Source: Acidisoma sp. L85 (GTDB lineage: Bacteria; Pseudomonadota; Alphaproteobacteria; Acetobacterales; Acetobacteraceae). Taken from it: a stretch of 64,000 bases of DNA. The DNA lies in the NCBI RefSeq assembly GCF_009765865.1, contig NZ_LMUQ01000052.1:156864-220863 (forward strand), in the 5' to 3' direction. Shown here one piece after another: positions 15,481-34,399 of this stretch (its first letter is position 1; the number at the start of each line of letters is the position of its first letter). Made by a program: the position numbers and the translations under genes. The notes under the pieces are model-generated. The model did not search any database. It was not told where the DNA came from and worked only from the letters and a program-made list of their open reading frames with translations.

Positions 15481-15565
15481 GAAAAGTGACGCCTTGCGCG
15501 CCTCCGTCTCCTGCAAAGCAGCGTCGCCGCGTCGCCGCGCCTGTCAACCGTCATGGAGAATACTG

Positions 15566-16618
15566 ATGAAGTCAGGCCTGGCTCTTGTCGGCGCAATTAT
15601 ATCAGCGATGGCAATCGCACCCCGAGCTGCGCATGCGGATCCCAATTGGTGGCCCTTTGCGGTCGAGGTTCATAATGGCGGGCCCAGCACGACGAAAATC
15701 GAATATACGCCGCCCAATGCCCCAACGAAGCATTGGAAGCTCTGCGCGCTGATCCCCAACCTCGCCGACAGCTACTGGCTCGCCATCAATTATGGTATGG
15801 TGGAGGAAGCCAAGCGTCTGGGCATCACGCTGACCACGCTCGCCGCCGGCGGCTATGACCAGTTGCCAAAGCAGATTTCTCAGTTCGATGACTGCGTTTC
15901 CTCGGGCGCCGATGCGATCCTTTTGGGCGCGATCTCCGAAGCGGGTTTTTCCGGGAAGCTGGCCGAGGCTGCGAAGAAGGGCCTGATCGTGATCGGCGTC
16001 GCGAACCCGATCGAGAAAGCGCCCGTCACCGCCAAGATCACCGTCAGCCACTATGCTAAGGGCAAGGCCTCTGGCGATCTTCTGGTGCAGCACCTCGGCA
16101 GCGCCGGTGGCGAGGTCGTGGCCTTCCCAGGTCCGCAAGGTTCCGGCTGGGCGGAGAGCTATTTGTCGGGTTTCGAGGATTCGCTGAAGGGCAGCAAGGT
16201 GAAGCTGATGGCGGCGAAGTTCGGCGGCGCCAACGTGCCCGACCAGCTCAATCTCGTAACCGACGCCTTGCAGGCTTATCCCGACATGAACGCCATCTGG
16301 GGCGGCGCGCCCACGGTGGAAGCGGCGCTCGGCGCGGTGGCCGAGGATGGCCGTACCGTCGCGATCGCGTCTTCCTGGGAGAATCAGGCGATGCTCGATG
16401 CTGTCAAAAGCGGCAAAATTCTCGGCTTCGCGGCGGAATATCCGGTGATCATGGCTCGCATCAGCGTCGATCTCGGTGTGCAAGCCTTGGAGAAGACGCT
16501 GAAAGGGCAGGAATACGACGTCGTTCCCGGCCTGGTCACCAAGGCCAATCTCGATAAGACCGATCTCACGCAGATCTTCGCGGCCAAAGGTTTCCGCCCC
16601 GTCTTCGACGTGCATTGA
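15566..16618 (+). CDS. TorT/RbsB-like periplasmic substrate-binding protein
   Basis: The ATG at 15566 follows GGAGAA. It gives a 350-residue protein with a Sec signal (KSGLALVGAIISAMAIAPRA, cleavage near AHA-DP). An upstream in-frame start would bury the signal. The mature protein has the two-lobed periplasmic-binding fold of class B sugar binders. WKLCALIPNLADSYWLAINYG and DQLPKQISQFDDCVSSGADA resemble TorT-type proteins. TorT senses trimethylamine N-oxide in Escherichia coli, but no torS or torR is present here and the next genes are an ATPase and two permeases. It is therefore the binding component of a CUT2 importer. The solute need not be a sugar, given the amide-hydrolase genes downstream. 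Confidence 0.88.
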   Translation: MKSGLALVGAIISAMAIAPRAAHADPNWWPFAVEVHNGGPSTTKIEYTPPNAPTKHWKLCALIPNLADSYWLAINYGMVEEAKRLGITLTTLAAGGYDQLPKQISQFDDCVSSGADAILLGAISEAGFSGKLAEAAKKGLIVIGVANPIEKAPVTAKITVSHYAKGKASGDLLVQHLGSAGGEVVAFPGPQGSGWAESYLSGFEDSLKGSKVKLMAAKFGGANVPDQLNLVTDALQAYPDMNAIWGGAPTVEAALGAVAEDGRTVAIASSWENQAMLDAVKSGKILGFAAEYPVIMARISVDLGVQALEKTLKGQEYDVVPGLVTKANLDKTDLTQIFAAKGFRPVFDVH

Positions 16619-16636
16619 GGGCCTAGACAACGCGGC

Positions 16637-18193
16637 GTGAGCGTGGAGCAGGCAAGCGCGGTCACCCCGCTACTCGTTCTGAGCGGGGTGACGAAGCGTT
16701 ACGGTGCCTTCCGCGCTTTGGATGGTGTGGATTTCGATCTCCGGCCGGGTGAAGTGCATGTCCTGTTCGGCGAGAACGGGGCCGGCAAATCGACGCTGAT
16801 CAATGTCATCACCGGCAACGTTGCTTTCGGTGAGGGCACTTACAGTGTTCAGGGCCGGCCCGCCGCCGGTCTCTCCCCGCAAACGCTGCGCGCCGCCGGC
16901 ATCGCGGCGGTGTTTCAGGAATTCAGCCTCCTGCCCGACCTCACGGTCGAGGAAAATCTGTTTCTCGGCCGTGAAATGCGGCACGGACCCTTTGTCGATC
17001 GTACGGCGATGCGGCGCCGTTCGGCGAAGCTTTTCGCGGAGCTCGGCTTCGACATTCCAGTCTCCACCTTGGTCGGCAGCCTGTCGCGGCCGGAACAGCA
17101 GATGGTGGAGATCGCCAAGGCGTTGATGTTCGATGCGCCGATCCTGATCCTGGACGAGCCGACGGCGTCACTGACCGACACGGACGCGGACCGGCTCTTC
17201 GCGGTTGTGGCGCGGCTGAAGGCGCGCGGTGTCGGCATCATCTATGTCTCGCACCGCATGCGGGAAATCCGGCTGCTGGCGGACCGCATCACCGTTTTGC
17301 GCAACGGCCGCAGGATCGCGACAATCGCGGCCAGCGGCGTTACCGAAGCGGCGCTGGTCGAGATGATGGCCGGCCGTCCCTCGGGCGAACTCTATCCCGC
17401 GATCCGCCACACGCCCGCGGCCGAGCGGTTGCGGATCGAGAACCTCGCCACGCCGGATGGTCTGGTCCGCACCGTATCGCTGTCGGTTCATGCCGGGGAG
17501 ATCGTCGGGCTTGCCGGCCTCGTCGGCTGCGGCAAAAGCGAGATCGGCCGCGCCGTCTTCGGATTGCTGCCGATTGCCGCGGGCAGCATCACGGTCGATG
17601 GTCAGGTCGTGGCGGCGCCGCATCCGCGCGCCATGCTTCGCCGAGGCGTCTGCTACCTGCCCGCCGATCGCGGCACCGAGGGTCTCGCCCTCAACCGCCC
17701 GGTGCGGGAGAACGTCACCATGGCCGCGCTCGATACAAGCACATTGGGTGGCGGCGGGCTGCTGCGCCTCCGCGCCGAAAAGGGCGTCGCGGCACGCTTG
17801 CTGGAACGCCTGTCAGTGCGGCCCCCTTCGCCTGAGCCGCCGGTGCTCAATCTATCCGGCGGAAACCGCCAGAAGGTCATGCTGACGCGCGGTCTGGTGC
17901 GCCCGACGGATGTTTTCCTGTTCGACGAACCCACCGTCGGGATCGATGTCGGTGCCAAGGCCGAGGTCTATGCCCTGATGCGCGATTTGACCGAGGCGGG
18001 GGCGGCGGTGCTGCTGGTCTCCTCCGACCTGCCGGAGATTCTGCATCTCTCGCACCGGATTTACGTGATGCATCAAGGCGTGATCGTGCGTGAACTGGCG
18101 GGCGCCGAGCGGACTGAAGAAGCCATCCTATCCTGCTTCTTCGGCAGCGCCCTCCTCCAAGATGCCACGACCGCCGGGGAAGCCGTCGCATGA
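16637..18193 (+). CDS. CUT2 ABC importer ATPase (RbsA/XylG-like, two NBDs)
   Basis: The start is the GTG at 16637, 18 bp after the binding-protein gene; there is no nearer ATG. This 518-residue protein carries two ABC modules. The first has Walker A GENGAGKST at 45-53, a variant signature SLSRPEQQMVEIAKAL and Walker B ILILDEPTASLTD. The second has the usual degenerate Walker A GLVGCGKSEIG, here keeping a Lys, then LSGGNRQKVMLTRGL and VFLFDEPTVGIDVG. It powers uptake through the two permeases encoded next, overlapping the first by four bases (ATGA). The order binding protein, ATPase, permease, permease is standard for CUT2 systems with split permeases. Confidence 0.93.
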   Translation: MSVEQASAVTPLLVLSGVTKRYGAFRALDGVDFDLRPGEVHVLFGENGAGKSTLINVITGNVAFGEGTYSVQGRPAAGLSPQTLRAAGIAAVFQEFSLLPDLTVEENLFLGREMRHGPFVDRTAMRRRSAKLFAELGFDIPVSTLVGSLSRPEQQMVEIAKALMFDAPILILDEPTASLTDTDADRLFAVVARLKARGVGIIYVSHRMREIRLLADRITVLRNGRRIATIAASGVTEAALVEMMAGRPSGELYPAIRHTPAAERLRIENLATPDGLVRTVSLSVHAGEIVGLAGLVGCGKSEIGRAVFGLLPIAAGSITVDGQVVAAPHPRAMLRRGVCYLPADRGTEGLALNRPVRENVTMAALDTSTLGGGGLLRLRAEKGVAARLLERLSVRPPSPEPPVLNLSGGNRQKVMLTRGLVRPTDVFLFDEPTVGIDVGAKAEVYALMRDLTEAGAAVLLVSSDLPEILHLSHRIYVMHQGVIVRELAGAERTEEAILSCFFGSALLQDATTAGEAVA

Positions 18194-19203
18194 CGGCGCC
18201 GACCCGTGCCATGCGGGGGCACGGCGGCTGGGCTCTGCCGCTGCGTATCCTGCAGGATGGCGGGCTGCTGATCGTGCTGATCGTGCTGCTGGCGATGATC
18301 ACCGGCCATGTCCAGCCGCGCTTCTACAGCCGTCTCAACATGCTCAACATGCTGCGCGAGGCCGCCTATCTCGCCATCGTCTCGCTGGGCCAGATGCTGG
18401 TCATGATCGCGGGTGGCTTCGACCTGTCGGTGGGCGTGGTCAGCGCGCTAGCCTCGGTCGTCGCGGCCTCGCTGATGGCGATGCTCTATGCCGGCGGCGG
18501 GGATGTGACGGTCACGATGATCCTGTGGCCGGTTCTCGCGGCCTTGGCGGCCGGCGCGGCGGTGGGTCTCGCCAATGGCTTTTGCGTGTCCGTGCTGGAC
18601 CTGTCACCCTTCATGACGACCTTGGCGATGACCTCGGTCGTCGCCGGCGGCACGCTGTATTACACCCAGGGCATTCCGATCTACGGCCTGCCGGAACGCT
18701 TCGGCGAGATCTTCGGGCGGGGTTCGTTCCTGCATGTTCCAGCCAGCGTCATGGTCGCATTGGTCTTTCTCGCGCTGATCTGCCTGGTGCAGCGCACGAC
18801 GCCGCTGGGCCGCCACATCTACGCCGTGGGCAGCAAAGCCCGCATCGCCGCCCTATCGGGCGTGCGGCCGGTTCCCATCCTGATGCTGGTCTACGGCGCC
18901 GCCGGGCTGCTGGCGGCCTGTATGGGCCTGCTGGTGACGGCGCGCATCGGTTCCGGCCAGGCGAGCATCGGCGCGTCGCTGGTCATCGAGTCCATCTCGG
19001 CCGCCGTCATCGGCGGCGTGCCGCTGCGCGGCGGGTCCGGCAGGGCGGAGCGGGTGGTGCTGGCCGCGATCTTCCTCACCGTCGTCTCCAACAGCATGAA
19101 TCTGCTGCGGATCGACAGCAAGCTACAGACTTTGGTGCAGGGCTCGGTGGTGATCATCGCCATCGCCTTGGAACGCGCCTTCGCCCGGCGGCGTCAGTCA
19201 TGA
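18190..19203 (+). CDS. CUT2 ABC importer permease 1
   Basis: This 337-residue membrane protein has about eight to ten hydrophobic segments. LGQMLVMIAGGFDLSVGVVS is the conserved ribose-type permease motif, and ESISAAVIGGVPLRGGSG is the C-terminal one. The start overlaps the ATPase stop by four bases and its own stop overlaps the next start, showing translational coupling. It forms the inner-membrane channel with permease 2. A second frame across this gene is open for its whole length, but the motifs identify the frame used here. Confidence 0.92.
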   Translation: MTAPTRAMRGHGGWALPLRILQDGGLLIVLIVLLAMITGHVQPRFYSRLNMLNMLREAAYLAIVSLGQMLVMIAGGFDLSVGVVSALASVVAASLMAMLYAGGGDVTVTMILWPVLAALAAGAAVGLANGFCVSVLDLSPFMTTLAMTSVVAGGTLYYTQGIPIYGLPERFGEIFGRGSFLHVPASVMVALVFLALICLVQRTTPLGRHIYAVGSKARIAALSGVRPVPILMLVYGAAGLLAACMGLLVTARIGSGQASIGASLVIESISAAVIGGVPLRGGSGRAERVVLAAIFLTVVSNSMNLLRIDSKLQTLVQGSVVIIAIALERAFARRRQS

Positions 19204-20186
19204 GCGCCACGGCGGAGCGGCCGGGCCGCGAAACGCTGCGCGCCGCGCTGCGCTCGCCGATCCTGCGGGTGATCGCACCCATCGTCATCATGCTGGTCGG
19301 CTTCGCGATTGCCCAGCCGCGCGTGGTTTCGCCCGGCAATCTGCTGAACATCGCGGTGCAGGCGAGCTATCTGACGATCCTCGCGGCCGCACAGATCCTC
19401 GTGTTGCTGACACGCGGCTTCGACCTGTCCATCGGCATGACGGTCTCCCTGGTCAGCGTCGTGGCGGCCTTGGCCATGACGGCGGGCGGGCATGCGGGAC
19501 CCGAGGCGGTCCTGTTCGGCATCGCGGCGGGGCTGGGCACTGGTGCCGCGGTGGGCGCGATCAATGGCGCGCTGGTGTCGCTGGTCGGCGTCAATCCCTT
19601 CGTCGTCACGTTGGGGATGTTCAACATCCTCCTCGCGCTGAGTTCCATCGTCAGCGGTGGCTTTCCTGTGCAGGGCCTGCCCGCCGGCTTCCTGTCGCTG
19701 TTCGGCGGCACTTTTGCCGGTGTGCCGGTGCCCGTCGCGGCGGCGGTGCTGGTCGTGCTGGTCGTCCATCTCATCCTGGGACGCACGGTTTTTGGCCGCA
19801 GCCTGTATCTGATCGGATCGAGCCCCGCCGCGGCGCGCGTCGCGGGGGTCCGCACGCGGCTGCATCTCTGGGCCGTCTACGTGTTGTGTTCCGGCCTCGG
19901 CGCTTTCGGCGCGCTGCTGCTGACGGCGCGCACGCAATCGGGCGAGCCCAATCTCGGCGGCAGCCTCGCCTTGCAGACCATCGCCGCCGCCGTCATCGGC
20001 GGCACGCGGTTGCAGGGCGGAGAGGGAAGCGCGCTTTCGGCCGTCGCCGGCGCGCTATTCGTCACGGTGCTTTCCAACGGCATGGACCTGGTCCGCGTCG
20101 ATAGCTACATCCAACAGGTCTGCGTCGGCGCGATCATTCTCGCGAGCCTGGTGCTGGACCGCTGGACCGCCGCAAGGCGCTCCTGA
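19200..20186 (+). CDS. CUT2 ABC importer permease 2
   Basis: The ATG at 19200 overlaps the previous stop (ATGA) and gives 328 residues. A much longer frame upstream has no start or RBS of its own and only mirrors the preceding permease gene. AAQILVLLTRGFDLSIGMTV and ALQTIAAAVIGGTRLQGGEG are the signature motifs of the ribose/xylose-type permease family. About eight to ten membrane spans are expected. It pairs with permease 1 to form a heterodimeric pore; the two share the same motif layout but differ clearly in sequence. The HyuA gene begins 17 bp downstream, indicating the same mRNA. Confidence 0.92.
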   Translation: MSATAERPGRETLRAALRSPILRVIAPIVIMLVGFAIAQPRVVSPGNLLNIAVQASYLTILAAAQILVLLTRGFDLSIGMTVSLVSVVAALAMTAGGHAGPEAVLFGIAAGLGTGAAVGAINGALVSLVGVNPFVVTLGMFNILLALSSIVSGGFPVQGLPAGFLSLFGGTFAGVPVPVAAAVLVVLVVHLILGRTVFGRSLYLIGSSPAAARVAGVRTRLHLWAVYVLCSGLGAFGALLLTARTQSGEPNLGGSLALQTIAAAVIGGTRLQGGEGSALSAVAGALFVTVLSNGMDLVRVDSYIQQVCVGAIILASLVLDRWTAARRS

Positions 20187-20203
20187 TTTCCCGAAGGTAC
20201 AAG

Positions 20204-22264
20204 ATGGCTTTCCAGATTTGCATCGATATCGGCGGCACCTTCACCGACTGCCTGGTGGCGGATGAGAGCGGCGAGATCCGCATCTTCAAGGCGCCGACGA
20301 CGCCCGGCGCCTTCCATCTCGGCTTCATCGACGTGCTGCATGTCGCCGCCGCCGGCCTGGGACTGGAACCGCGCGACTTCATCGCCGCCATCGAGACTTT
20401 GGTGCATGGATCGACCGTTTCCACCAACGCGCTGGTGGAGGGTAAGGTCGCCCGTACCGGCGTCCTCCTCAACGAGGGGCACCAGGACATCCTGGTTTTG
20501 CGCGAAGGCCCCCGCAAACGGGGCTTCGAGTGGCGGCTGGATTATCCCGACCCCTTCGTGCCGCGCGCGCTGACCCGCACCGTTGGTGGTCGCATCGACG
20601 CGCGCGGCCGCGAACTGGTGCCGCTGGCCGAAGCCGACGTGCATGCCGCCATCGCGCATCTGCGCGCGCTGAATGTCGAGGCGCTGGCGGTCGGTCTGCT
20701 GTGGTCGGTGGTCAACCCGTCGCATGAGCTGCGGGTTGGCGAAATCCTGAAACGCGAATGGCCCGAACTGCCGGTGACGCTCAGCCATGAGGTCAATCCG
20801 ATCCCGCGCGAATATCGCCGCATCATCGCCGCCGCGATCGACGCCTCCATCAGCCCGACCATCCGGCGCTATATCGCGGCGTTGCAGGAAGCGCTGGATG
20901 GCGCCGGCTTCACCGGCGAGTTGCTGCTGGCGAATTGCCTCGGCGGTATGATGCCGGTCGCCGAAATGCTCGGCAAACCGATTTACAGCGTGATGTCGGG
21001 TCCCACTCTGGCACCGATGGCGGCGCTGGCGCTGAGTGACGAGTCCGACATCATCGTGGGTGACATGGGCGGCACCACGTTCGACGTTTCGGCGCTGCGC
21101 GACCACCAGATCATCGTGACGCCGGAATCGATGATCAACAAGGATCTACTCGGCATCCCCAAGGTGGATGTGCGCTCGGTCGGCGCGGGCGGCGGCTCCA
21201 TCGCTTTCGTCGATGATGGCGGGCTGCTGCATGTCGGCCCGCGCAGCGCCGGCGCGCGGCCGGGCCCCGCCTGCTACGGCGCCGGCGGCACGGAGCCGAC
21301 GGTGACGGATGCCAATGTGGTGCTGGGCATCATCGACCCGGATTACTTTCTCGCCGGACGCATCACGCTGAACCGCGCGCTGGCCGAGCAGGCCGTGGGC
21401 CGGGTGGCGGAGCGCCTGGGCATCGGGCTGCTCGATGCCGCCTACGCAATCCACACCACCAGCAATCACAATATGGTCGCGGCGATCGAGGAGATCACGG
21501 TGCGCGAGGGAATCAACCCGCGCGACAGCTATTTCGTCTGCGGCGGCGGCGGCACCGCCTGCCATGTCGCCGAGATGGCGGATATCCTGGGCCTGCGGCG
21601 CTACATGGTCCCGCGCTTCATGGCGGGGCTGAGCGCCTTCGGCGGCCTCATCTCCGATATCCGCTGGGAGCGCAACGGCGTCTGCCAAACCAACGACCGC
21701 GATTTCGATTTCGCCGCCGTGAACGCCCTGCTCGCCCGGTTGCGGCAGGAGGGCGAGGCTTTCCTGGAAGCGGCCCGCGTGGAACCTTCGCTCCGCAGCT
21801 ACGTCTATTCCTTCCAAGGCCGCTACGAATACCAGTCCTGGGAAATCGAGGTCGGTTTCGATGCCGCCGACGGCATCGTGACGCCCGCGCAATTGCCCGA
21901 GCTGGTGGAGGCGTTTCACCGCATGCATGAACGCATCTACGCCATTCGTTCGGACCGCGACGTGGTGGAATTCACCACGTGGAAGGTGCGCGCCAATGGC
22001 GCCCGCCGCAGCGGAGACGCCTGGAAGCGGTTCGAGATCGCTCGCCAGGACAGCATGGCGAAACCCAAATCCGAACGGCCGCTCTTCATCCAGGAGGCCG
22101 GTGGCCTGCAAACGGTTCCGGTCTATGACGGCGCGAAACTGGGGCGGGACGCGGCCGTCCACGGCCCCTGCCTGATCGAGACGGAAACCTTCACCGCCGT
22201 GCTGAAACGCCAGCACACGGCGCGGATGGACCGGTTCGGAAATCTTCTGGTTGAGGTGGCCTGA
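20204..22264 (+). CDS. hyuA: Hydantoinase/oxoprolinase subunit A (HyuA)
   Basis: This 686-residue protein has the usual length for the A subunit. It opens with CIDIGGTFTDCLVADESGE, the phosphate-binding loop of the ASKHA-fold N-terminal domain. It continues with TLVHGSTVSTNALVEGK and the central DMGGTTFDVSAL second phosphate motif near residue 290, then VRSVGAGGGSIAFVD. HyuA/HyuB enzymes use ATP to open five-membered cyclic imides or lactams such as N-methylhydantoin and 5-oxoproline. Related acetone carboxylases share the fold, but the third acetone-carboxylase subunit is absent here. It is followed after one base by HyuB and preceded by an importer, so it probably opens a ring in the imported solute. 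The exact substrate is not deducible. Confidence 0.93.
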   Translation: MAFQICIDIGGTFTDCLVADESGEIRIFKAPTTPGAFHLGFIDVLHVAAAGLGLEPRDFIAAIETLVHGSTVSTNALVEGKVARTGVLLNEGHQDILVLREGPRKRGFEWRLDYPDPFVPRALTRTVGGRIDARGRELVPLAEADVHAAIAHLRALNVEALAVGLLWSVVNPSHELRVGEILKREWPELPVTLSHEVNPIPREYRRIIAAAIDASISPTIRRYIAALQEALDGAGFTGELLLANCLGGMMPVAEMLGKPIYSVMSGPTLAPMAALALSDESDIIVGDMGGTTFDVSALRDHQIIVTPESMINKDLLGIPKVDVRSVGAGGGSIAFVDDGGLLHVGPRSAGARPGPACYGAGGTEPTVTDANVVLGIIDPDYFLAGRITLNRALAEQAVGRVAERLGIGLLDAAYAIHTTSNHNMVAAIEEITVREGINPRDSYFVCGGGGTACHVAEMADILGLRRYMVPRFMAGLSAFGGLISDIRWERNGVCQTNDRDFDFAAVNALLARLRQEGEAFLEAARVEPSLRSYVYSFQGRYEYQSWEIEVGFDAADGIVTPAQLPELVEAFHRMHERIYAIRSDRDVVEFTTWKVRANGARRSGDAWKRFEIARQDSMAKPKSERPLFIQEAGGLQTVPVYDGAKLGRDAAVHGPCLIETETFTAVLKRQHTARMDRFGNLLVEVA

Positions 22265-22265
22265 C

Positions 22266-24020: not shown

Positions 24021-24108
24021 TCCGCGCGCTTGCACAAGCCTATCATCGTCCCAGTTGATGGCAGGTCGCTTGCTTTAAGAAGCTGCACCGCAGCGTAAAG
24101 GAGGACAC

Positions 24109-25650
24109 GTGTTGCCGTCCAAGCCCTGCCTCATGGCACTCGCCGCCGGCGTGATGCTCGCCAGCGGTGTGACCGGCGCCCGCGCCGCCGACCAAAAACT
24201 GTTTGTGTGGGCGGAAGCGGTCGAGCCGAGTACGGTCGATCCAGCGAAGAGCGACGTCAATCAAGAGATGACCATCGCGCGCAATGTCTTCGACCATCTG
24301 ACGAATTTTGATCTCGATCACCCGGACCATATCCTTCCCGCGCTTGCGACGAGCTGGACGGAGGACGGCACGAGCTGGACCTTCAAGCTGCGTGATGGCG
24401 TTGCATTCCACAATGGCCAGGCATTCGACGCGAATGACGTCAAAGCCACGATCGAGCGCGACCTGCGTATTGGTCAGGGCCAGAGCTATCTGGTGGGCGA
24501 CATCAAGACCGTGACGGTACTCGATCCACATACGGTAAAGATCGAAACTGCGAAGCCCGATGTCTATCTGGCAGCCAATCTGTCGCGCATCGAAATCATG
24601 TCGGCAAAGGACATCGCCGCTCACGCAGCCGATTCCGATCACGGCGATAGCTATTTCTCCGCTCATGCCGATGGCACCGGTCCCTATAAGATGCTCAGTT
24701 GGACCCGGGGCGCCCAAATCGACTTGGAGCGCAACAAGTCCTGGTGGGGTCAGTTTCCTGCAAAGCCCTTCGACCATGTGATCGACAGGTTCGTCACGCA
24801 GGCGTCGGACCGGTCACGCGGCCTTGAAGGCGGTGAATACGATCTCGCGAATTTCGTCCCGCGTGACGAAGCGGTGCGCATCGGCAAGAGCAAGGGCTTC
24901 TACCTTGTTGAAGGCAACAACCTCTGGGCCTGGCCGGCGATCTATCTCAACACGAAGCTCGCGCCGACCAGCAACGAATCGTTCCGCAAGGCGCTGGTGG
25001 AGTCCTTTTCCTACGACGCGATGAACCAGTATTTTCTGGGCGCCTCTGTCACGCCTCGCGGGCCGGTACCTGCCTGGGTCCCCGGCAGTCCCGAAAAGGA
25101 CCTTGCGGTCATCAAGACGGATCTCAATGCCGCCAAGGCCGATCTCAAGGCATCGGGTCTTTCCAACCCGACGATGAAATGCTCCATCCCATCGGGTTTT
25201 TCCGAATTCGCCTTCGCCGCTACAGTTCTTCAGGCGTCGGCGGCGCAGATCGGCATCAATGTCCAGATCGAACAGCTGCCCTTTGTCCAGGCCATCGAAG
25301 CCATCAAGTCCAACAAAAGCAATTGTTTCGTGCTGGGCAATGCAAATCTAAGCCCGACGGATCCGACCCGGTTTTTTGCGGCACACTATCTGACGGGCGG
25401 CTTCTACAATTCCGCCAATTACTCAAACCCGCAGCTCGATGCGCTCGTCCAGGAAATCCCGACGGTCACGGATCCTCAGAAGCGCTATGAGATGCTCAAG
25501 CAGGCATCCGAGATGGTGGTGAATTCGCATACCATTATCTGGGCCGCACGGCCGACGACGATTGTGCCTGTTCCGGACGGCGTCGGTGGATACCGTATCG
25601 ATCCGGCGGAATACATCAACGTAAGACTGTGGGAGCTGTACAAGAAATAG
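24109..25650 (+). CDS. Peptide/nickel-type ABC substrate-binding protein (SBP family 5)
   Basis: The start at the GTG at 24109 (or the TTG at 24112) follows the strong AAAGGAGGA at 24097-24105, the best RBS in the operon. It gives 513 residues. The Sec signal is MALAAGVMLASGVTGARA followed by A-DQK. The mature protein matches the DppA/OppA family: FVWAEAVEPSTVDPAKSDVN, LPALATSWTEDGTSWTFKLR and DGVAFHNGQAFDANDVKAT. An 88-bp gap before it is the widest inside the fourteen-gene unit, so an internal promoter is possible, although none is evident. The family binds peptides, opines, glutathione, nickel chelates and other amide-rich molecules. It supplies the importer encoded downstream. Confidence 0.92.
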   Translation: MLPSKPCLMALAAGVMLASGVTGARAADQKLFVWAEAVEPSTVDPAKSDVNQEMTIARNVFDHLTNFDLDHPDHILPALATSWTEDGTSWTFKLRDGVAFHNGQAFDANDVKATIERDLRIGQGQSYLVGDIKTVTVLDPHTVKIETAKPDVYLAANLSRIEIMSAKDIAAHAADSDHGDSYFSAHADGTGPYKMLSWTRGAQIDLERNKSWWGQFPAKPFDHVIDRFVTQASDRSRGLEGGEYDLANFVPRDEAVRIGKSKGFYLVEGNNLWAWPAIYLNTKLAPTSNESFRKALVESFSYDAMNQYFLGASVTPRGPVPAWVPGSPEKDLAVIKTDLNAAKADLKASGLSNPTMKCSIPSGFSEFAFAATVLQASAAQIGINVQIEQLPFVQAIEAIKSNKSNCFVLGNANLSPTDPTRFFAAHYLTGGFYNSANYSNPQLDALVQEIPTVTDPQKRYEMLKQASEMVVNSHTIIWAARPTTIVPVPDGVGGYRIDPAEYINVRLWELYKK

Positions 25651-25663
25651 GGCAGGTCGAAGC

Positions 25664-26677
25664 ATGACGGTTTTCCTGCTCAGGCGGGTTGGCTGGGCGA
25701 TCCTTGTTCTGTTTGTCGTGGCGACACTGACCTTCGTGTTGAGCCACGTCGTGCCGGCGGATCCGGCAGCCTTCCTGGCGGGCCAGAATGCGACTGCCGA
25801 TACAGTCGCGCGCATTCGCGCCGAATACGGGCTCGACCAGCCATTGCTGATACAATATCTGAGCTACCTGAGAGGTCTGTTGCACGGAGATTTTGGCATC
25901 TCCTTGCGGACCGGGCGACCGGTCTCCGAGGATCTGGCGAGCTTTCTGCCAGCGACGCTCGAACTCCTGTTTTTCAGCTTCGCGATCTACGTTGCGACCA
26001 GCTTGTTTCTAGCAATCATCGCGGCGAAGCGGCCAGGCGGCAGGCTCGATTCCGGGATCCGCCTTTTTACCATGCTGGGCAGCGGCATGCCGGTCTTCTG
26101 GTTAGGCATGGCCCTACAATTTCTATTTTTCTACAAGCTGGGACTGCTTCCCCTGGGAGGCCGATTTCCTCTCCGGGCCATCGCCCCACCAACGGTCACC
26201 GGCTTCCTCTTGGTGGACACTTTGCTTGCTGGCCAACCGGGCGCCTTTCTTAGCGCGCTCAGCTGCCTTATCCTGCCGTCGGCAGCAATCGTCCTGAACC
26301 TGTTGGCCGTGGGGACCAGGATGTCGCGGGCCGCGCTGATCTCGGAATCCGGTAAGCAATATGTGCGGACGGCGAGGGGCAAGGGCGTTGGACCTCGGCG
26401 CATCCTGTACCGGCACGTGTTACGCAATGCGATGACGCCGATTCTGGCGTCCACCAGCATCCAGTTCGGCTATATGATAAGCTGGGTGATCCTGGTTGAA
26501 GTGATTTTCGACTGGCCGGGCATCGGACTTTACGCCTATCAGTCCTTCCAAGTCTTCGACTACGCACCCGTCGTGGCGCTCGCATTGGTGTCGACCGCCG
26601 TCTTTTCCATCATCAACGTGCTCCTGGACATCCTCTATCCCATCATAGATCCCCGCATGCGGAGCCTTCGCGCGTGA
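25664..26677 (+). CDS. Peptide-type ABC permease (DppB-like)
   Basis: The protein has 337 residues with six predicted spans. It begins FLLRRVGWAILVLFVVATLT, the classical DppB N-terminus. ARGKGVGPRRILYRHVLRNA near residue 240 is the EAA-type loop that contacts the ATPase. FDWPGIGLYAYQSFQVFDYA is the conserved C-terminal segment. It lies 13 bp after the binding-protein gene and overlaps the next permease by four bases. It forms a heterodimeric channel with the DppC-like partner. Confidence 0.93.
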   Translation: MTVFLLRRVGWAILVLFVVATLTFVLSHVVPADPAAFLAGQNATADTVARIRAEYGLDQPLLIQYLSYLRGLLHGDFGISLRTGRPVSEDLASFLPATLELLFFSFAIYVATSLFLAIIAAKRPGGRLDSGIRLFTMLGSGMPVFWLGMALQFLFFYKLGLLPLGGRFPLRAIAPPTVTGFLLVDTLLAGQPGAFLSALSCLILPSAAIVLNLLAVGTRMSRAALISESGKQYVRTARGKGVGPRRILYRHVLRNAMTPILASTSIQFGYMISWVILVEVIFDWPGIGLYAYQSFQVFDYAPVVALALVSTAVFSIINVLLDILYPIIDPRMRSLRA

Positions 26678-27540
26678 GCGCGGCCGCACCCCCGAGTGAG
26701 TCGAGCACTCCCGGGCGCCCGCACGGCGTCTCGGCGGAGCGTGTGATGGTTGTCTTGTCGTGGCTTTTCGTCCTGATGCTGGTCTGCTTCGCTGTTGCGC
26801 CGAGCCTCATTGCGCCGCGCAACCCTGTCGCACTCGACATCCTCCATCGCCTGCAACCGCCCAGCTTCGCCCATCTCTTCGGCACGGATGAGGGCGGGCG
26901 TGATGTCTTCTCCCGCGTGGTATATGGTACGCGGTATTCGCTTGGCATCTCGGCCGCCATCGTTCTGAGTGCTGCCGTCTTCGGCGTTGTCTATGGCGCG
27001 CTCTCAGGCGTGGGACCGCGCTGGCTCGACGAAATCCTAATGCGCATCGTCGACATATTCTTTGGTTTTCCCGCGCTGGTGCTCGCCCTGGCGGTTGCCG
27101 CCGCTCTCGGGCGGGGATTGACCAGCGTGGCCGTGGCACTGTCCCTCATCTGGTGGCCGGGCATCGCGCGGCTGGTGCGGGGTGAGGTGCAGCGTATTCG
27201 AGAAAGACCGCATGTCGAAGCGGCACGGGCTATCGGCGTATCGCCCACGTCACTGATCTGGCGGCATATCCTGCCTTTCGTGATGCAGGAAGTGAATGTG
27301 CGCGTGACAACCGATATCGGCTACGCGCTCGTCGCCGTCACGGCCTTGTCCTTCCTCGGGCTCGGGGCGCAATCCCCGACACCCGAATGGGGATTGCTTA
27401 TCCGTGATTCACAGGATTATTTCGGTTCCGCTTGGTGGTATCTGGTCTTCCCCGGCGTGATGATCATGGCAACGACCGCCGCCTGCTCGATTATTGGTGA
27501 CTCACTTGCGTCTCATCGGGAAAGCGGTGTCGCGCCGTGA
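26674..27540 (+). CDS. Peptide-type ABC permease (DppC-like)
   Basis: The GTG start at 26674 overlaps the DppB-like stop (GTGA) and gives 288 residues. The DppC family pattern is clear: HLFGTDEGGRDVFSRVVYGT, then a membrane segment, then EAARAIGVSPTSLIWRHILP as the EAA loop. FLGLGAQSPTPEWGLLIRD is the standard C-terminal signature. About six spans are expected. It pairs with the DppB-like permease, and its stop overlaps the start of the first ATPase gene. Confidence 0.93.
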   Translation: MSAAAPPSESSTPGRPHGVSAERVMVVLSWLFVLMLVCFAVAPSLIAPRNPVALDILHRLQPPSFAHLFGTDEGGRDVFSRVVYGTRYSLGISAAIVLSAAVFGVVYGALSGVGPRWLDEILMRIVDIFFGFPALVLALAVAAALGRGLTSVAVALSLIWWPGIARLVRGEVQRIRERPHVEAARAIGVSPTSLIWRHILPFVMQEVNVRVTTDIGYALVAVTALSFLGLGAQSPTPEWGLLIRDSQDYFGSAWWYLVFPGVMIMATTAACSIIGDSLASHRESGVAP

Positions 27541-28508
27541 TGCTGCAAATCCGCGATCTTTCCGTAAGTTTCGGCCGACGGCGCGCGGTCGATGGCGTGT
27601 CTTTCGACGTGGAGGAGGGCGAGTTCTTCCTGGTGATCGGCGAGTCCGGGTCCGGAAAATCGCTGACCGGAGGGGCAATCCTTGGACTCAATCCCAGTGG
27701 TTCCACCCGCACCGGCTCCATTCGCTTCAAGGGACGCGAGATGCTCGAGCTGCCGGAGCGGGAATTGCGCCACTTGCGTGGCGACCAGATCGGTATCGTC
27801 TACCAAAATCCCTTGAGCGCGATGAACCCGGTCATCCGCGTGGGTGATCAAATCGCGGAATCGATCATCGTTCACGGCAAGGGAAGCGGCCGCGCGGCCG
27901 CGACCCGCGCCATCGAACTGTTGGAACGCGTGCATATCCCCGATCCGGCCCGCGTCGCGCAGGCATTTCCGCACGAGATCAGTGGTGGAATGCGGCAGCG
28001 CGCAATGATCGCCATGGCGCTCGCTTGCGGACCGAGCCTGTTGATAGCGGACGAACCGACGACGGCGCTGGATGTGACGATCAAAGCGCAGATCCTCGAA
28101 TTATTCGCGGAACTCAGGCGCGAGCGTTCGCTCACCATCATCCTGATCACCCATGACATGGGCGTGGTCACGCAACTCGCGGACCGCGTGCTGGTCATGT
28201 ATGCCGGCAAGGTTGCCGAGGTTGGTCCGGTGGAGACCATCATGAACCAGCCGGCGCATCCCTATACAAAGGCGTTGATGCTGAGCGGCGCGATGTCGGA
28301 CGCGCCATTTAAGAGCGTGTTGCAAGTCATTCCTGGCTCGGCGCCGACCCTGGATGCGCGACCTCTCGGCTGTCGCTTCAACCCGCGCTGCGCCTATGCC
28401 CAAGATGATTGTCGGGCAACGATGCCGTCGCTGCGTCCAATTGCAGGCAGCCTGGCCGCTTGTCATCACCCGCTGGTTGGGTTTCGGCACTCGGAGCTGG
28501 TTGCGTGA
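27540..28508 (+). CDS. Peptide-type ABC ATPase (DppD-like)
   Basis: The ATG at 27540 overlaps the permease stop by one base; a GTG three bases earlier is possible. It has 322 residues. Walker A is [12 protein letters not shown], the signature is [16 protein letters not shown] and Walker B is [14 protein letters not shown]. The C-terminal oligopeptide/dipeptide domain carries [14 protein letters not shown], a cysteine cluster that binds an iron-sulfur cluster in related DppD proteins. It couples ATP hydrolysis to uptake together with the next ATPase. The next start codon overlaps its stop. Confidence 0.94.
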
Positions 28509-29581
28509 CGCCGCTGCTCGAGCTTGAAGACGTCACCAAGGTGTTTGGTGGTCGCAGAGCCGGCGCGACGGTTCGGGCCGTCGATGGCGTGACCCTGCGT
28601 GTCGGTCGCGGTGAAACGCTGGGCGTCGCCGGGGAGAGCGGCTGCGGGAAATCGACCCTCGCCCGTCTCGCGCTGCGTCTCATGGACGCGACCGACGGTG
28701 TGGTTCGGTTTGACGGCCAGGATGTAACGCATCTCTCGTCGCTGGGCTTGCTGCCGGTGCGCCGCCGGATGCAAGCTGTCTTTCAAGATCCGCTCGCCTC
28801 CTTCAACGCGCGTGAAACCGTGCGCCGGATCATGCGCGAGCCCTTCAACGTTCACAGTCTCAGCCCATCCGGCGGCATCGACGCGAAGATAGAGGAGCTG
28901 CTGACCTCGGTTGGTCTCTCGGCGACGGACTTGGACAAACGCCCGGACGAATTCTCCGGCGGTCAACTTCAGCGTATCGCAATCGCGCGGGCTCTTGCGG
29001 TAGAGCCGGAGCTGATGATCGGCGACGAGCCGACCTCTGCGCTGGATCCCTCGATCCAGGCGCAAATCATCAATGTTCTGCTTTCGATCCAGCGCGATCG
29101 GAATGTCGCTTTTCTCATCATCTCTCATGACCTCGACGTACTTGGGCATATCGCGGACCGGCTTGCGATCATGTATTTGGGCGTGGTGGTGGAAACCGGC
29201 CCGGGACCGGCATTGATGGCCGGTCCGCTGCATCCCTATACCCAGGCGCTCCTATCCGCGGCACCTACGCCGCGTGCACGCCGTAACCAGCAGTGGAAGC
29301 GCGTTCTGCTGCCAGGCGATCCCCCTAGCCCCGCGCATGTGCCCGCTGGCTGCCGCTTCCATCCTCGCTGCCCCATTGTACAGCCCGACTGCCGAACGAC
29401 CGTCCCTGTATTGCGGGCGGTTGGCCCCGATGGCACGCAGGTGGCTTGCCACTACGCACCCGAGGAGACTCAGACGCAAGGCAGGGCGATCGCCGCGGCG
29501 AGACTCGGGCACGATGGCGATCCCCCGCCGACGATCTCGCCGGGACAGCATGGGGTTCTCGCATCGGGGGACCGGATATGA
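28505..29581 (+). CDS. Peptide-type ABC ATPase (DppF-like)
   Basis: The GTG at 28505 overlaps the preceding stop (GTGA) and gives 358 residues. Starting further upstream would run into the neighbouring gene. Walker A is [13 protein letters not shown], the signature is [16 protein letters not shown] and Walker B is [14 protein letters not shown]. The C-terminal domain has [14 protein letters not shown], another cysteine cluster of the DppF/OppF type. A tail of ~40 residues after the family domain ([15 protein letters not shown]...) is not conserved-looking. It pairs with the DppD-like ATPase. The SMP-30 gene start overlaps its stop. Confidence 0.93.
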
Positions 29582-30426
29582 CGACGCTGCAAGTCCATGT
29601 CGAGGGTCTAGGCTTTCCCGAAGGCCCGGTCGCGCTGCCGGATGGGTCGATCGCTTTCGTGGATCTCGTTCATTCCAAGATACTGGCATATCGTGACGGC
29701 GTTTGCCGGGAACTCTGTTCGGTTCCAGGCGCACCTAATGGAATGCGCCTTGGGCCTGACGACGTTTTGACGGTCTGCAACAACGGCGGTATTGGGCCGA
29801 TTGCAAAAGGCTTGCTGGGCTTTGCGGATCCGCAGATTAACGGCCGCCTGCAGAAGGTAACCCTAGACGGACGCTGGTCCGACTTCGCCACCGATCTGCC
29901 GGGCGAGCGGCCCAACCGCCCCAACGACCTCGTTTTTGCCGCGAATGGAATCGTTGTCTTCACCGATCCGCAGAATTGGGATGTGCTGCACGAGGCGCAG
30001 GGTGCAGAGCGCTATCATGGCGGGCAGCTGTTGCTCGCGAAGCCGGACGGCACGGTGTCGCGTTTGGCGAAGCTGACGGGATTTCCCAACGGTCTTGTCT
30101 TTCACCCCGACGGCTCCCTCCTCGTCGGGCTTTCGACCGAAAGTCGCATCCTGCGGTTCCCCTGGCGCGGAGATGCGGTTGGCCCGGCGGAGGAGTGGTA
30201 CAGCTTTGACGACCGCTTCGCGCCCGACGGCATGGTGTTTCACGATGATCGCTTCTATGTCACCGGCAGCACCGGCGATCGCGTCGCCGTACTTGATCCT
30301 GCCGCGCGGGTAGTGAGTGTCATCGACACCGGGATTGGCAGCGACCCGACGAATTGCTGCGTCCACGACCGAAGATTATGGGTGACGCTGGGTCTTCCTG
30401 GCCGACTCGTTTCGATCGATATCTAG
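29578..30426 (+). CDS. SMP-30/gluconolactonase-like protein
   Basis: The ATG at 29578 overlaps the preceding stop (ATGA) and gives 282 residues. It is a six-bladed beta-propeller of the SGL family: LGFPEGPVALPDGSIAFVDL with the metal-ligand Glu, NRPNDLVFAANGIVVFTDPQ with Asn/Asp ligands, and FPNGLVFHPDGSLLVG plus FAPDGMVFHDD for the last sites. The family hydrolyses lactones or acts as a calcium-bound esterase. No signal peptide is seen, so the lactone would be opened in the cytoplasm. Its tight fusion to the importer genes suggests the substrate or an intermediate is a lactone. Confidence 0.9.
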   Translation: MTTLQVHVEGLGFPEGPVALPDGSIAFVDLVHSKILAYRDGVCRELCSVPGAPNGMRLGPDDVLTVCNNGGIGPIAKGLLGFADPQINGRLQKVTLDGRWSDFATDLPGERPNRPNDLVFAANGIVVFTDPQNWDVLHEAQGAERYHGGQLLLAKPDGTVSRLAKLTGFPNGLVFHPDGSLLVGLSTESRILRFPWRGDAVGPAEEWYSFDDRFAPDGMVFHDDRFYVTGSTGDRVAVLDPAARVVSVIDTGIGSDPTNCCVHDRRLWVTLGLPGRLVSIDI

Positions 30427-30458
30427 GCACCTCTCGCGATCGCTCTAGGATTACTGTC

Positions 30459-32138: not shown

Positions 32139-32140
32139 TT

Positions 32141-34399
32141 ATGTCAAAGCCCGGCGCGATTGTGGAGATGTTGCGTGACGAGTGGGGTATTCCCCATATC
32201 AAGGCGCGTGGCAGGCAGGATGCGTTCACCGCTCTCGGCTATGCGCATGCGGAGGATCGCCTCTGGCAAATGGAGGCGCTGCTGCGCCGTGGAACCGGCC
32301 GATACGCGGAATGGCTCGGGCAGGCTGCCGTGGGGGGTGACGTTGTGGCGCGCCGGCTCGACACCGCGGGCGCGTCGCAGCGTGACTATGCTGCTCTTAA
32401 CAGCGAAACGCGCGCGATGCTTGAGGCTTATGCCGCAGGCGTCAACGCCTTCATCGGGATCGGTCATCGCCCCGTTGAATACGGCATCCTGAACGCCGAG
32501 CCTGACGCTTGGCAGCCATGGCATTCGATCGCAGTGATGCGGCAGATCGGCTTTCTGATGGGGTCGGTGTGGTGGAAGTTGTGGCGAGCGGTCGCGCTGC
32601 CGATCGTCGGCGTGGCGAACGTGGCCAAGCTGCGTTTCGATGATGGCGGCAACGAATTGCTGTGCTTGCCGCCCGGAGTGGAGACGGGTGCGTTTACGGC
32701 CGAACTGCGAGAGTTGAAGCCCGGCATCGAAGCCCTGCTCGGAACCGCCGCTCCGGATGTCAGCGATGGCGGCAGCAACAACTGGATTCTCGCGCCGGAT
32801 CGCACCGAGACCGGTCGGCCTTTGCTGGCTGGCGATCCGCATCGCGTGCTGGAAATGCCGAACATGTATGCGCAGGTGCATCTCGCCTGCGACGAGTTTG
32901 ATGTCATCGGGCTTACCGTGCCTGGCGTTCCGGGCTTTCCACATTTCGGCCATAGCGAGTCGGTCGCATGGTCGGTCACGCATGCTTTTGTGGATATCCA
33001 CGACCTCTATGTCGAATGCTTCGGCGATGGCGGCGCCACCGTGCTTTTTCGCGATACATGGGAACCGGTGCGACGCCGGCGCGAGACGATCGGGGTACGG
33101 GGCGGTGCGGATGTCGCGGTCGAAGTGGTGGAGACCAGGCACGGACCGGTCATCGCGGGTGACCCGGCAAGCGGCTCAGCGCTCGCGTTGCGCTCGATGC
33201 AATTCGCGGAGACCGACCTTTCGTTCAACTGCATGATCCCGATGATGCGGGCCGAAAACGTCGCCGCGCTGTACGAGGCAACGCGGGACTGGGGTATGAT
33301 GGACCACAATCTCGTGGCTGGTGATGTTGCCGGTAATGTGGGCTATCGCGTGCGCGCCAAGGTACCGCGCCGTCCACGATCGAACGGCTGGTTGCCTGTG
33401 CCGGGCTGGACCGGTGCCCATGAATGGGACGGCATGGTGCCGTGGGAAAGCATGCCGTCCGCCATCAATCCGCCGGGTGGCGTCATCGTGACCGCGAACA
33501 ATCGCGTGACGCGCGATGATGACGATGAATACCTATCGACCGATGCCATGCCGCCGCATCGGGCGCGACGCATCTGGCGGCGTCTGGCGATGCTCGCTAA
33601 AGCGAATGTCGATGACATGGCCGCGATCCACCGCGATGTAGAAACCATTCCCGGCCAGGAATTGCGGGACCGCCTGCGCGGTTTGGCCGGGATTGAGTCC
33701 GTGGCGATCGCATTGCATCGCCTGATCATGGAGTGGGATGGGCGCATGGATCGGGATTCGGAGGGAGCAAGCGCCTATATCGCCGTGCGCCTCGCCTTGA
33801 CTCGGTTGGTTGCCTTGCGCTCGGGCCTGTGCGCGGCGGGCGACGCCCCCTATGCCCAGGCGGCGCCCGGGGTCATTCCAGAAAACCAGCTCTGGTGGAT
33901 CGTTCCCAGCTTGCTGCGCGCCGATGACACGTCGCTGCTGTCAGGAGCGTCCTGGGATGACGTTCTGCGAATGGCGCTGCGGGACGCGGCCAACACCAAG
34001 CTCGAAACCTGGGGGCGCCTACATCTGCCCCGTTTCAAACATGCTCTTTCGGCGGCGTTTCCTAAGCAAGCGGCGGCGCTCGATCGTTTCTCGGCGGAGG
34101 TCGGTGGCGACAACGACACCGTCTTCGCGACGGGTTGTTTGGCGAGCGTCGGTACCCGCGCCGTATCTGGTTCACTGTGCCGCTACGTGTTCGATGTCGG
34201 CGCTTGGGACAATTGCCGCTGGATCGTGTTCCACGGGGCCTCTGGCGATCCCGACAGTTCCTGGTATCTCAATCAAAATGCGCGATGGGCGACTGGCGAT
34301 ATGGTGCCCATGCTGTACGACTGGAATCAGGTCGCGGCTGGGGCGACGGCCCAGCGTCGACGGCGATTCAGCGACGGGCGCGTTTATCCGGATGAATAA
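32141..34399 (+). CDS. Penicillin-acylase-family Ntn hydrolase, no signal peptide
   Basis: The ATG at 32141 lies two bases after the preceding stop; an upstream in-frame start would overlap that gene. It has 752 residues. The first ~210 form the alpha chain, beginning VEMLRDEWGIPHIKA and FTALGYAHAEDRLWQMEALL. The expected autoproteolysis site is Gly211-Ser212 in DGGSNNWILAPDRTETG, where Ser212 becomes the N-terminal nucleophile of the beta chain. The beta chain continues with GDPHRVLEMPNMYAQVHLAC. The family deacylates penicillins, cephalosporins or N-acyl homoserine lactones, usually in the periplasm. This protein starts directly with the alpha chain, so it should act in the cytoplasm on an imported N-acyl compound. 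It ends the fourteen-gene unit. Confidence 0.92.
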   Translation: MSKPGAIVEMLRDEWGIPHIKARGRQDAFTALGYAHAEDRLWQMEALLRRGTGRYAEWLGQAAVGGDVVARRLDTAGASQRDYAALNSETRAMLEAYAAGVNAFIGIGHRPVEYGILNAEPDAWQPWHSIAVMRQIGFLMGSVWWKLWRAVALPIVGVANVAKLRFDDGGNELLCLPPGVETGAFTAELRELKPGIEALLGTAAPDVSDGGSNNWILAPDRTETGRPLLAGDPHRVLEMPNMYAQVHLACDEFDVIGLTVPGVPGFPHFGHSESVAWSVTHAFVDIHDLYVECFGDGGATVLFRDTWEPVRRRRETIGVRGGADVAVEVVETRHGPVIAGDPASGSALALRSMQFAETDLSFNCMIPMMRAENVAALYEATRDWGMMDHNLVAGDVAGNVGYRVRAKVPRRPRSNGWLPVPGWTGAHEWDGMVPWESMPSAINPPGGVIVTANNRVTRDDDDEYLSTDAMPPHRARRIWRRLAMLAKANVDDMAAIHRDVETIPGQELRDRLRGLAGIESVAIALHRLIMEWDGRMDRDSEGASAYIAVRLALTRLVALRSGLCAAGDAPYAQAAPGVIPENQLWWIVPSLLRADDTSLLSGASWDDVLRMALRDAANTKLETWGRLHLPRFKHALSAAFPKQAAALDRFSAEVGGDNDTVFATGCLASVGTRAVSGSLCRYVFDVGAWDNCRWIVFHGASGDPDSSWYLNQNARWATGDMVPMLYDWNQVAAGATAQRRRRFSDGRVYPDE

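What the first reader, a model, noticed from the sequence alone, without database searches (positions are those of the whole stretch)
15566..34399. Fourteen-gene unit joining two importers to amide/lactone hydrolases
Seen: fourteen same-strand genes with gaps mostly under 35 bp or overlapping starts; the only larger gap is 88 bp. They encode a TorT-like CUT2 importer, HyuA/HyuB, a full Dpp-type importer, an SMP-30 lactonase, a DMFase-like protein and a penicillin-acylase-family enzyme. Known: HyuAB opens cyclic imides or lactams, SMP-30 opens lactones, DMFase cleaves amides and penicillin acylases remove N-acyl groups. Inference: an undescribed uptake and stepwise hydrolysis pathway for a cyclic, N-acylated compound, possibly a lactam, an N-acyl homoserine lactone or a peptide-like natural product. 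The combination is not one I recognise as a known pathway.
Basis: partly seen in the sequence, partly recalled or inferred. Interest (0 to 1): 0.75.

Follow-up and report, generated by a model that had tools for sequence, protein, structure and literature searches.

The report
Lactam-uptake regulon beside amide-scavenging module
Fourteen adjacent bacterial genes that look like one unit are better read as two joined modules that usually live apart: one, with its own repressor-type sites, probably imports and opens a ring-shaped amide (a lactam), and the other probably imports and trims acylated, peptide-like compounds.

Summary
The fourteen same-strand, tightly packed genes are real. They are best read as two modules joined at the 88-bp gap (24021-24108).

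Module A is torT-like/CUT2/hyuA/hyuB. A palindrome (TTATAASTTATAR) stands before the aminotransferase and before torT; the motif marks three rhizobial cassettes too. HyuAB keeps the ATP motifs and metal ligands of caprolactamase, with a more polar pocket. Best reading: a GntR-controlled importer plus ATP-dependent cyclic-amide hydrolase feeding an aminotransferase.

Module B is Dpp/SMP-30/DMFase-like/acylase. Its acylase, DMFase-like and Dpp genes recur together in Betaproteobacteria with no hyuAB within 10 kb. GC3 drops sharply at the junction.

Of 34 DMFase-like loci, 1 has hyuAB within 10 kb. One fourteen-gene pathway is therefore not supported. Both modules do recur beside GntR and class III aminotransferase genes and, in a few loci, split transketolase genes, so they look like related amide-scavenging modules, here a mosaic. 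Substrates and co-transcription are untested. New variant of a known kind.

The parts
13111..13788 (-). GntR/FCD regulator, divergent from the aminotransferase; probable regulator of module A
   Evidence: Pfam GntR + FCD; homologues near the cassette at 55% (L106), 49% (L107), 48% (L109), 49% (L112), 37% (L108)
13873..13885 (.). palindromic operator-like site TTATAAGTTATAA before the aminotransferase
13933..15321 (+). class III omega-aminotransferase
   Evidence: Pfam Aminotran_3; best solved match 5ghf, 508 bits, then the 6tb/6g4b group; in the cassette of L106 (68%), L107 and L109 (60%), L108 (50%)
15468..15480 (.). second operator-like site TTATAACTTATAG before torT
15566..16618 (+). TorT-like substrate-binding protein of a CUT2 importer
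   Evidence: Peripla_BP_4; TorT models PRK10936 248.6 bits (cut-off 200), TIGR02955 193.5 (cut-off 310)
16637..18193 (+). CUT2 ATPase, two ABC stretches
18190..19203 (+). CUT2 permease 1
   Evidence: BPD_transp_2
19200..20186 (+). CUT2 permease 2
   Evidence: open frame of 328 aa; homologous to the second permease of L106-L109 and L112 at 44-55%
20204..22264 (+). HyuA, ATP-binding subunit of an ATP-dependent cyclic-amide hydrolase
   Evidence: Hydant_A_N + Hydantoinase_A; best solved match 6yra_A, 412 bits
22266..24020 (+). HyuB, metal-site subunit
   Evidence: Hydantoinase_B; best solved match 6yra_B, 258 bits; metal tetrad conserved
24021..24108 (.). 88-bp junction of the two modules; AAAGGAGG before dppA, no operator copy
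24109..25650 (+). DppA-type solute-binding protein
   Evidence: SBP_bac_5; no homologue at E<=1e-90 in 199 other genomes drawn from the family or at E<=1e-60 in plasmids
25664..26677 (+). DppB-type permease
26674..27540 (+). DppC-type permease
27537..28508 (+). DppD-type ATPase
28505..29581 (+). DppF-type ATPase
   Evidence: scanned from the longer frame starting 28409
29578..30426 (+). SMP-30/gluconolactonase-like beta-propeller
   Evidence: SGL; best solved match 7ris beta-propeller lactonase, 75 bits
30459..32138 (+). DMFase-like amidohydrolase, 559 aa
   Evidence: DMFA2_C; profile matches 8i5a/8huy and 6lvb; Foldseek top nine
32141..34399 (+). Ntn-type acylase of the penicillin amidase family
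   Evidence: Penicil_amidase; 4hsr_B 673 bits, beta-chain Ser1 aligned

Best explanation
The stretch is a mosaic of two amide-scavenging modules. Module A (13111-24020): the GntR regulator acts at two palindromes, before the aminotransferase and before torT. When its inducer is present, the TorT-like/CUT2 importer brings in a cyclic amide; HyuA (ATP) and HyuB (metal site) open the ring to an omega-amino acid; the class III aminotransferase turns the amine into a semialdehyde, which an aldehyde dehydrogenase oxidises. Module B (24109-34399): a Dpp-type importer brings in an N-acylated or peptide-like compound, and two amidohydrolases, a probably cytoplasmic Ntn acylase and an iron-type DMFase-like enzyme, cut its amide bonds. 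Module B sits 88 bp behind module A and may be transcribed with it. Shown: gene content and order, the sites and their recurrence, catalytic-residue conservation, the composition break, separate occurrence elsewhere. Inferred: that GntR binds the sites, repression, import, ring opening of a lactam, which dehydrogenase follows, read-through, substrates.
For: Cassette gntR(-)/aminotransferase/torT/CUT2/hyuA/hyuB in L106, L107, L108, L109 (other genes lie between aminotransferase and torT in L106, L107, L109); in L112 gntR and the torT-to-hyuB block are together and a 45% aminotransferase lies about 9 kb away on the other strand (names). Sites: 2 in the window against 0.23 expected matches, 0 of 100 shuffles reaching the count; no others in 6.38 Mb at up to 1 mismatch; random regions of the same make-up as the two upstream stretches held a site in 2 and 4 of 2000. 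Exact sites on three rhizobial plasmids, two each, control 0: before the aminotransferase in 3 of 3, before torT in M. huakuii, before a split transketolase operon in P. gei and S. meliloti; 1-mismatch copies before torT in the last two. CapB ligands D41, H99, D102, H124 kept (residues from PMC8453981); ATP motifs kept. Module B: acylase, DMFase-like and Dpp permeases together in 6 of 34 DMFase-like loci, Dpp permeases in 13 of 34. GC3 break.
Against: No expression, binding or enzyme data. The genome-wide control for the site was not clean: the reversed pattern at up to 1 mismatch gave 2 + 3 strand matches against 2 + 2 for the real one, so weight rests on placement and recurrence, not rarity. 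The site is absent from the Ochrobactrum and Phaeobacter plasmids. HyuA similarity to CapA is not specific: six other HyuAs scored 500-577 bits against 534 here, all below the cut-off of 1000. The order of module B and its SMP-30 gene were not found elsewhere, and the window's Dpp proteins are only 23-50% identical to those beside the other acylase/DMFase-like genes. Shared GntR, class III aminotransferase and split transketolase neighbours could mean that the modules serve one pathway after all.
Confidence: 0.6

Rival explanations
1. One dedicated pathway: all fourteen proteins take up and dismantle one cyclic, N-acylated compound, with the upstream aminotransferase and GntR serving both halves.
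For: Same strand, short gaps. Aminobacter pAA04 joins HyuAB, a DMFase-like gene and Dpp on one strand. GntR, split transketolase and class III aminotransferase genes occur beside module A relatives and beside two module B relatives, L114 and L110. A class III aminotransferase hit lies within 10 kb of 20 of 34 DMFase-like loci (one confirmed by Pfam), and the window's module B has none of its own.
Against: hyuAB near 1 of 34 DMFase-like loci; no DMFase-like or acylase hit in 10 hyuA stretches; in two searches of 385 class genomes, strong HyuA hits (5 genomes) and strong DMFase-like hits (15 genomes) overlap only in the window's genome, though about 0.15 further overlap is all that chance would give; GC3 and codon-usage break; sites only on module A.
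Confidence: 0.17
2. Module A is for a five-carbon delta-lactam (2-piperidone or a 3-hydroxy or 3-amino derivative): ring opening, transamination, oxidation to glutarate or L-2-hydroxyglutarate, then 2-oxoglutarate through LhgO.
For: A LhgO gene above the family cut-off and an SSADH-like gene lie just behind hyuB in Ochrobactrum; LhgO is also about 2.4 kb from torT in Phaeobacter; the P. jessenii caprolactam cluster contains LhgO (PMC6061476, passages). CsiD is absent from the own genome and from 5 of 5 cassette plasmids, so hydroxyglutarate would need a hydroxylated precursor. Pocket more polar than in CapB.
Against: No LhgO hit in the held stretches of L106, L107 and L109; in the own genome LhgO sits among other CUT2 genes. 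In P. jessenii the LhgO, CsiD and CsiR genes lie in the cluster but are shown as not significantly upregulated (PMC6061476 figure legend). Rhizobial regulons carry transketolase, HDAC-like and polyamine-importer genes that this route does not need.
Confidence: 0.2
3. Module A handles a hydantoin, cyclic imide or N-methylated ring rather than a lactam, or HyuAB is a carboxylase-type enzyme.
For: HyuA also matches N-methylhydantoinase (359 bits) and acetophenone carboxylase subunits (272 bits); family similarity does not separate these.
Against: The best solved match of both subunits is 6yra, whose sequence carries the CapA motifs printed in PMC8453981; the partner is an omega-aminotransferase, which fits an omega-amino acid product.
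Confidence: 0.15
4. Quorum-signal or antibiotic degradation: the acylase and the SMP-30 protein attack acyl homoserine lactones or beta-lactams.
For: Best solved match of the acylase is a glutaryl-7-ACA acylase, 673 bits over the beta chain.
Against: PvdQ is distant (34 bits; NCBIfam 35 of 950 bits); no signal peptide seen; acylase and DMFase-like genes recur with Dpp importers and aminotransferases, which suggests nutrition.
Confidence: 0.05

Closest known systems
Caprolactam pathway of Pseudomonas jessenii GO3 (PMC6061476, PMC8453981; passages read)
   Same: ATP-dependent two-subunit lactamase with the same metal ligands and ATP motifs; class III omega-aminotransferase; a GntR-type regulator gene (CsiR there) in the cluster
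   Different: HyuB 33% identical over 553 positions; pocket L38 to N, M339 to N, vicinal Cys pair lost, F468 to A; a CUT2 importer is encoded here, whereas the paper names only induced candidate SBPs from other places; no LhgO or CsiD in the unit
ATP-dependent hydantoinase/oxoprolinase family
   Same: HyuA/HyuB pair
   Different: substrate unknown; tied to a TorT-like importer and GntR-type sites
Paracoccus N,N-dimethylformamidase (PMC7686228, passages read) and N-acetyl-(R)-beta-phenylalanine acylase (8i5a, 8huy)
   Same: fold match and the His-x-Glu of the iron site by alignment
   Different: 559 residues against about 775; about 290 chain residues between the first two matched stretches of 8i5a have no counterpart; no small-subunit gene seen
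Glutaryl-7-aminocephalosporanic acid acylase 4hsr (class III by recall)
   Same: processing Ser and the following His23 aligned
   Different: substrate untested; encoded with a Dpp importer
TorT of the TMAO sensor system
   Same: substrate-binding protein family
   Different: sits with a CUT2 ATPase and two permeases, so it is probably an importer part

Membership tests
ATP-dependent lactamase (CapAB type) | ATP motifs DxGGTxTD, DMGGT and GxxPGP in the A subunit | tested here: met
   alignment (DIGGTFTD, DMGGT, GARPGP); motifs from PMC8453981
ATP-dependent lactamase (CapAB type) | Asp-His-Asp-His metal site in the B subunit | tested here: met
   CapB 41/99/102/124 = D50/H107/D110/H132 of HyuB
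ATP-dependent lactamase (CapAB type) | ATP- and bicarbonate-dependent lactam hydrolysis | not testable with these tools
   needs an enzyme assay
Caprolactamase proper | NCBIfam CapA and CapB cut-offs (1000 bits each) | tested here: not met
   534.5 and 292.1 bits; six other HyuAs 500-577
Caprolactamase proper | hydrophobic pocket with vicinal Cys410-Cys411 | tested here: not met
   Cys pair becomes Asn and a gap; L38 and M339 become Asn, F468 Ala
CUT2 ABC importer | SBP, double-ABC ATPase and two BPD_transp_2 permeases together | tested here: met
   second permease by homology to cassette permeases, not scanned itself
TorT (TMAO sensing) | curated TorT models | tested here: inconclusive
   PRK10936 met (248.6 of 200), TIGR02955 not met (193.5 of 310)
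TorT (TMAO sensing) | TorS/TorR partners | not tested
   no search for torS or torR was made
N,N-dimethylformamidase | iron ligand Glu521 with His519 | tested here: met
   His-Asp-Glu invariant in 15 of 15 rows and aligned to the HPE of 8i5a; equivalence to 519/521 of 6lvb inferred from aligned ranges
N,N-dimethylformamidase | iron ligands Tyr399 and Tyr440 | tested here: inconclusive
   Tyr182 and Tyr191 (numbering) are invariant, but the mapping was not resolved
N,N-dimethylformamidase | pentraxin domain of the large subunit | tested here: not met
   559 aa; region unmatched
N,N-dimethylformamidase | separate small subunit | tested here: inconclusive
   no gene fits between the packed genes, but frames under 150 aa were not listed and no family search was made
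Penicillin amidase (Ntn) family | autoprocessing Ser at the beta-chain start | tested here: met
   query S214 aligned to residue 1 of 4hsr_B
Acyl homoserine lactone acylase PvdQ | curated PvdQ model | tested here: not met
   35.4 of 950 bits

The most novel reading that the evidence does not exclude
Module A is a dedicated, GntR-controlled lactam-acquisition regulon whose TorT-like/CUT2 importer is an unrecognised lactam importer spread among alphaproteobacterial plasmids. In this genome it has captured a second amide-scavenging module, so that one inducer switches on import and cleavage of both cyclic and N-acyl amides, all feeding one aminotransferase.
Probability: 0.25. Interest if true: 0.62.

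Novelty: new variant of a known kind. Interest (0 to 1): 0.45.

Why it matters
ATP-dependent lactamases are known, but the passages read on the caprolactam pathway name only candidate binding proteins for uptake (PMC6061476). A compact cassette that pairs such an enzyme with its own CUT2 importer, aminotransferase and regulator site makes the substrate directly testable: the binding protein and the operator are both handles on the unknown ligand. It would also correct the automatic name TorT for such proteins. The second module points to an uncharacterised DMFase-like branch that recurs with peptide importers and aminotransferases.

Tried and rejected
Caprolactam as the specific substrate: rejected as a claim, because six other HyuAs score as well on the CapA model and pocket residues differ. 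Acyl homoserine lactone or beta-lactam degradation: unlikely. The Aminobacter plasmid as proof of one pathway: weakened, its aminotransferase is HemL-like and its first importer LIV-type. A shared palindrome in the Ochrobactrum and Phaeobacter cassettes: none of the motif found. Promoter and terminator scans: uninformative, no more sites than shuffles. Single-sequence search of the DMFase-like protein against solved structures found nothing; the profile did. DppA gave no close relative. The structure model of the DMFase-like protein is of middling quality (mean pLDDT 64.9, pTM 0.75), so the metal site was not read from it. Paper searches for the combination found no paper or only the caprolactam and unrelated papers; the library holds open-licence papers only.

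Rows dropped: the neighbour table leaves out L046 and L047 (26-28% identity) and the hits that were not fetched (G290, G360 twice, G384, G425, G520, G552); L038 is the contig of genome G031; several rows are close relatives (two Achromobacter; G457 and G232 share a genus). Of hyuA homologues of at least 50% identity, H68 (same strain as H69) and G422 were not fetched. The AT107 query was dropped from one script because it was out of frame.
Full report
Observation. The window lies in a 6.38-Mb genome of 85 contigs. Its class is Alphaproteobacteria by inference: genome G457, marked same class, has a contig of 1,126,962 bases with a match starting at 762025, the same length and position as the Tistrella mobilis record NC_017958.1. 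The family was not established.

Module A. Genes 15566-24020 recur in the same order, torT-like SBP, CUT2 ATPase, two permeases, hyuA, hyuB, in Mesorhizobium huakuii, Pararhizobium gei (an IS630 copy splits one permease there), Ochrobactrum quorumnocens, Sinorhizobium meliloti Rm41 and Phaeobacter inhibens plasmids, hyuA 66-70% and hyuB 65-73% identical. A class III aminotransferase (50-68%) and a divergent GntR gene (37-55%) precede it in four of these five; in Phaeobacter the aminotransferase lies about 9 kb off on the other strand. Of ten fetched stretches around hyuA homologues of at least 50% identity, 5 of 10 have the torT/CUT2 block in front. In the own family hyuA had no relative above 43% in 59 other genomes, and torT matched in 2 of 199 others, each time beside a different hyuAB pair of 26-33% identity. 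This suggests horizontal acquisition (inference).

Regulator sites. TTATAAGTTATAA (13873-13885) and TTATAACTTATAG (15468-15480) stand 48 and 86 bp before the aminotransferase and torT start codons. Expected matches in the window 0.23; no shuffle of 100 reached the count. Genome-wide there is no other site at up to 1 mismatch, but the reversed control pattern gave five strand matches against four, so rarity alone proves little. Placement does: random regions like the two upstream stretches contained a site in 2 and 4 of 2000 trials. On three rhizobial plasmids of 686, 272 and 1550 kb the exact motif occurs at two places each, control none: before the aminotransferase in all three, before torT in M. 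huakuii, and before a split transketolase operon in P. gei and S. meliloti. One-mismatch copies precede torT in the latter two. In M. huakuii the aminotransferase site lies between it and the divergent transketolase genes. The motif is absent from the Ochrobactrum, Phaeobacter and Aminobacter plasmids. That GntR binds it is inference.

Enzymes of module A. HyuA and HyuB match 6yra best; that 6yra is caprolactamase follows from its motifs as printed in PMC8453981 (passages). The metal tetrad is fully kept; several pocket residues turn polar or smaller and the vicinal cysteines are lost. The CapA score is not specific, since six other HyuAs score 500-577 bits. The aminotransferase matches 5ghf best and then 6g4b, which I recall as the P. 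jessenii 6-aminohexanoate aminotransferase. The P. jessenii cluster holds the lactamase, aminotransferase, dehydrogenase, LhgO, CsiD and CsiR (PMC6061476, passages). LhgO and an SSADH-like gene lie behind hyuB in Ochrobactrum, and LhgO near torT in Phaeobacter. The own genome has LhgO elsewhere and no CsiD; CsiD is also missing from the five cassette plasmids. A C5 delta-lactam is therefore one candidate, not more.

Module B. Among 34 DMFase-like loci, acylase genes lie within 10 kb in 6, Dpp-type permeases in 13, class III aminotransferase hits in 20, GntR hits in 10, hyuAB in 1 and SMP-30 in 0 (eight rows with incomplete flanks). The six acylase/DMFase-like/Dpp loci are betaproteobacterial (Achromobacter, Bordetella, Pusillimonas, Variovorax and one unnamed MAG). 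The window's Dpp proteins are only 23-50% identical to theirs. The acylase has relatives of 53-62% identity in about 25 of 199 other genomes drawn from the family. The DMFase-like protein aligns by profile and by fold with N-acetyl-(R)-beta-phenylalanine acylase and dimethylformamidase and keeps the His-x-Glu of the iron site in 15 of 15 aligned rows (residues from PMC7686228, passages). The acylase aligns with glutaryl-7-ACA acylase from the processing Ser onward.

Are the halves one system? Against: separate occurrence, the GC3 step (0.76-0.89 to 0.70-0.74, p 0.0007), a codon-usage break that is strongest after gene 6 (0.124; after gene 7, 0.123; 15 of 5000 label shuffles reach it), and sites on module A only. 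In two searches of 385 class genomes, strong hyuA and strong DMFase-like hits met only in the window's genome, although chance would give only about 0.15 more. For: Aminobacter pAA04 joins HyuAB, a DMFase-like gene and Dpp. Split transketolase genes with GntR and class III aminotransferase lie beside module A in rhizobia, beside an acylase/Dpp locus in Variovorax paradoxus VAI-C and beside a DMFase-like/Dpp locus in Rhizobium sp. SSA_523. I read this as a family of amide-scavenging loci that swap importers and hydrolases around a common core; the window is one mosaic.

Noticed in passing
window 34576-40960: Same-strand GAF/HTH_8 regulator, aldehyde dehydrogenase (PRK10090 739 bits) and a second CUT2 set (SBP, ATPase, permease) follow after gaps of 176, 110, 95, 84 and 6 bp; the dehydrogenase could serve module A, untested.
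   Followed up: partly
window 42947-44089: Phage-integrase-family recombinase gene a few kb downstream, a possible sign of a mobile border.
   Followed up: no
L183 3611-12419; L184: In P. gei and S. meliloti the exact motif precedes a split transketolase, HemL-like aminotransferase, polyamine-type importer and SDR operon, so the rhizobial regulon is larger.
   Followed up: partly
L107 11423-12448; L109 12448-13461: Histone-deacetylase-family gene between aminotransferase and torT, perhaps an acetylpolyamine hydrolase.
   Followed up: no
L116 698-26884: Mesorhizobium sp. 131-3-5 plasmid: two hyuAB pairs with LIV-type and polyamine-type importers, HemL-like aminotransferase, acetolactate-synthase-like gene and SSADH.
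   Followed up: partly
G000:C1:135001-136161 (L176): LhgO gene of the own genome sits next to CUT2-type ATPase and permease hits and an SDR hit.
   Followed up: partly
DMFase-like loci L111, G420, G347: DMFase-like gene beside a CoA-transferase gene, 69-73% identical between loci, in three alphaproteobacteria.
   Followed up: no
L038: The record title says Solirubrobacterales, yet the contig equals one of genome G031, listed as the same family as the window's genome; the title looks wrong.
   Followed up: no
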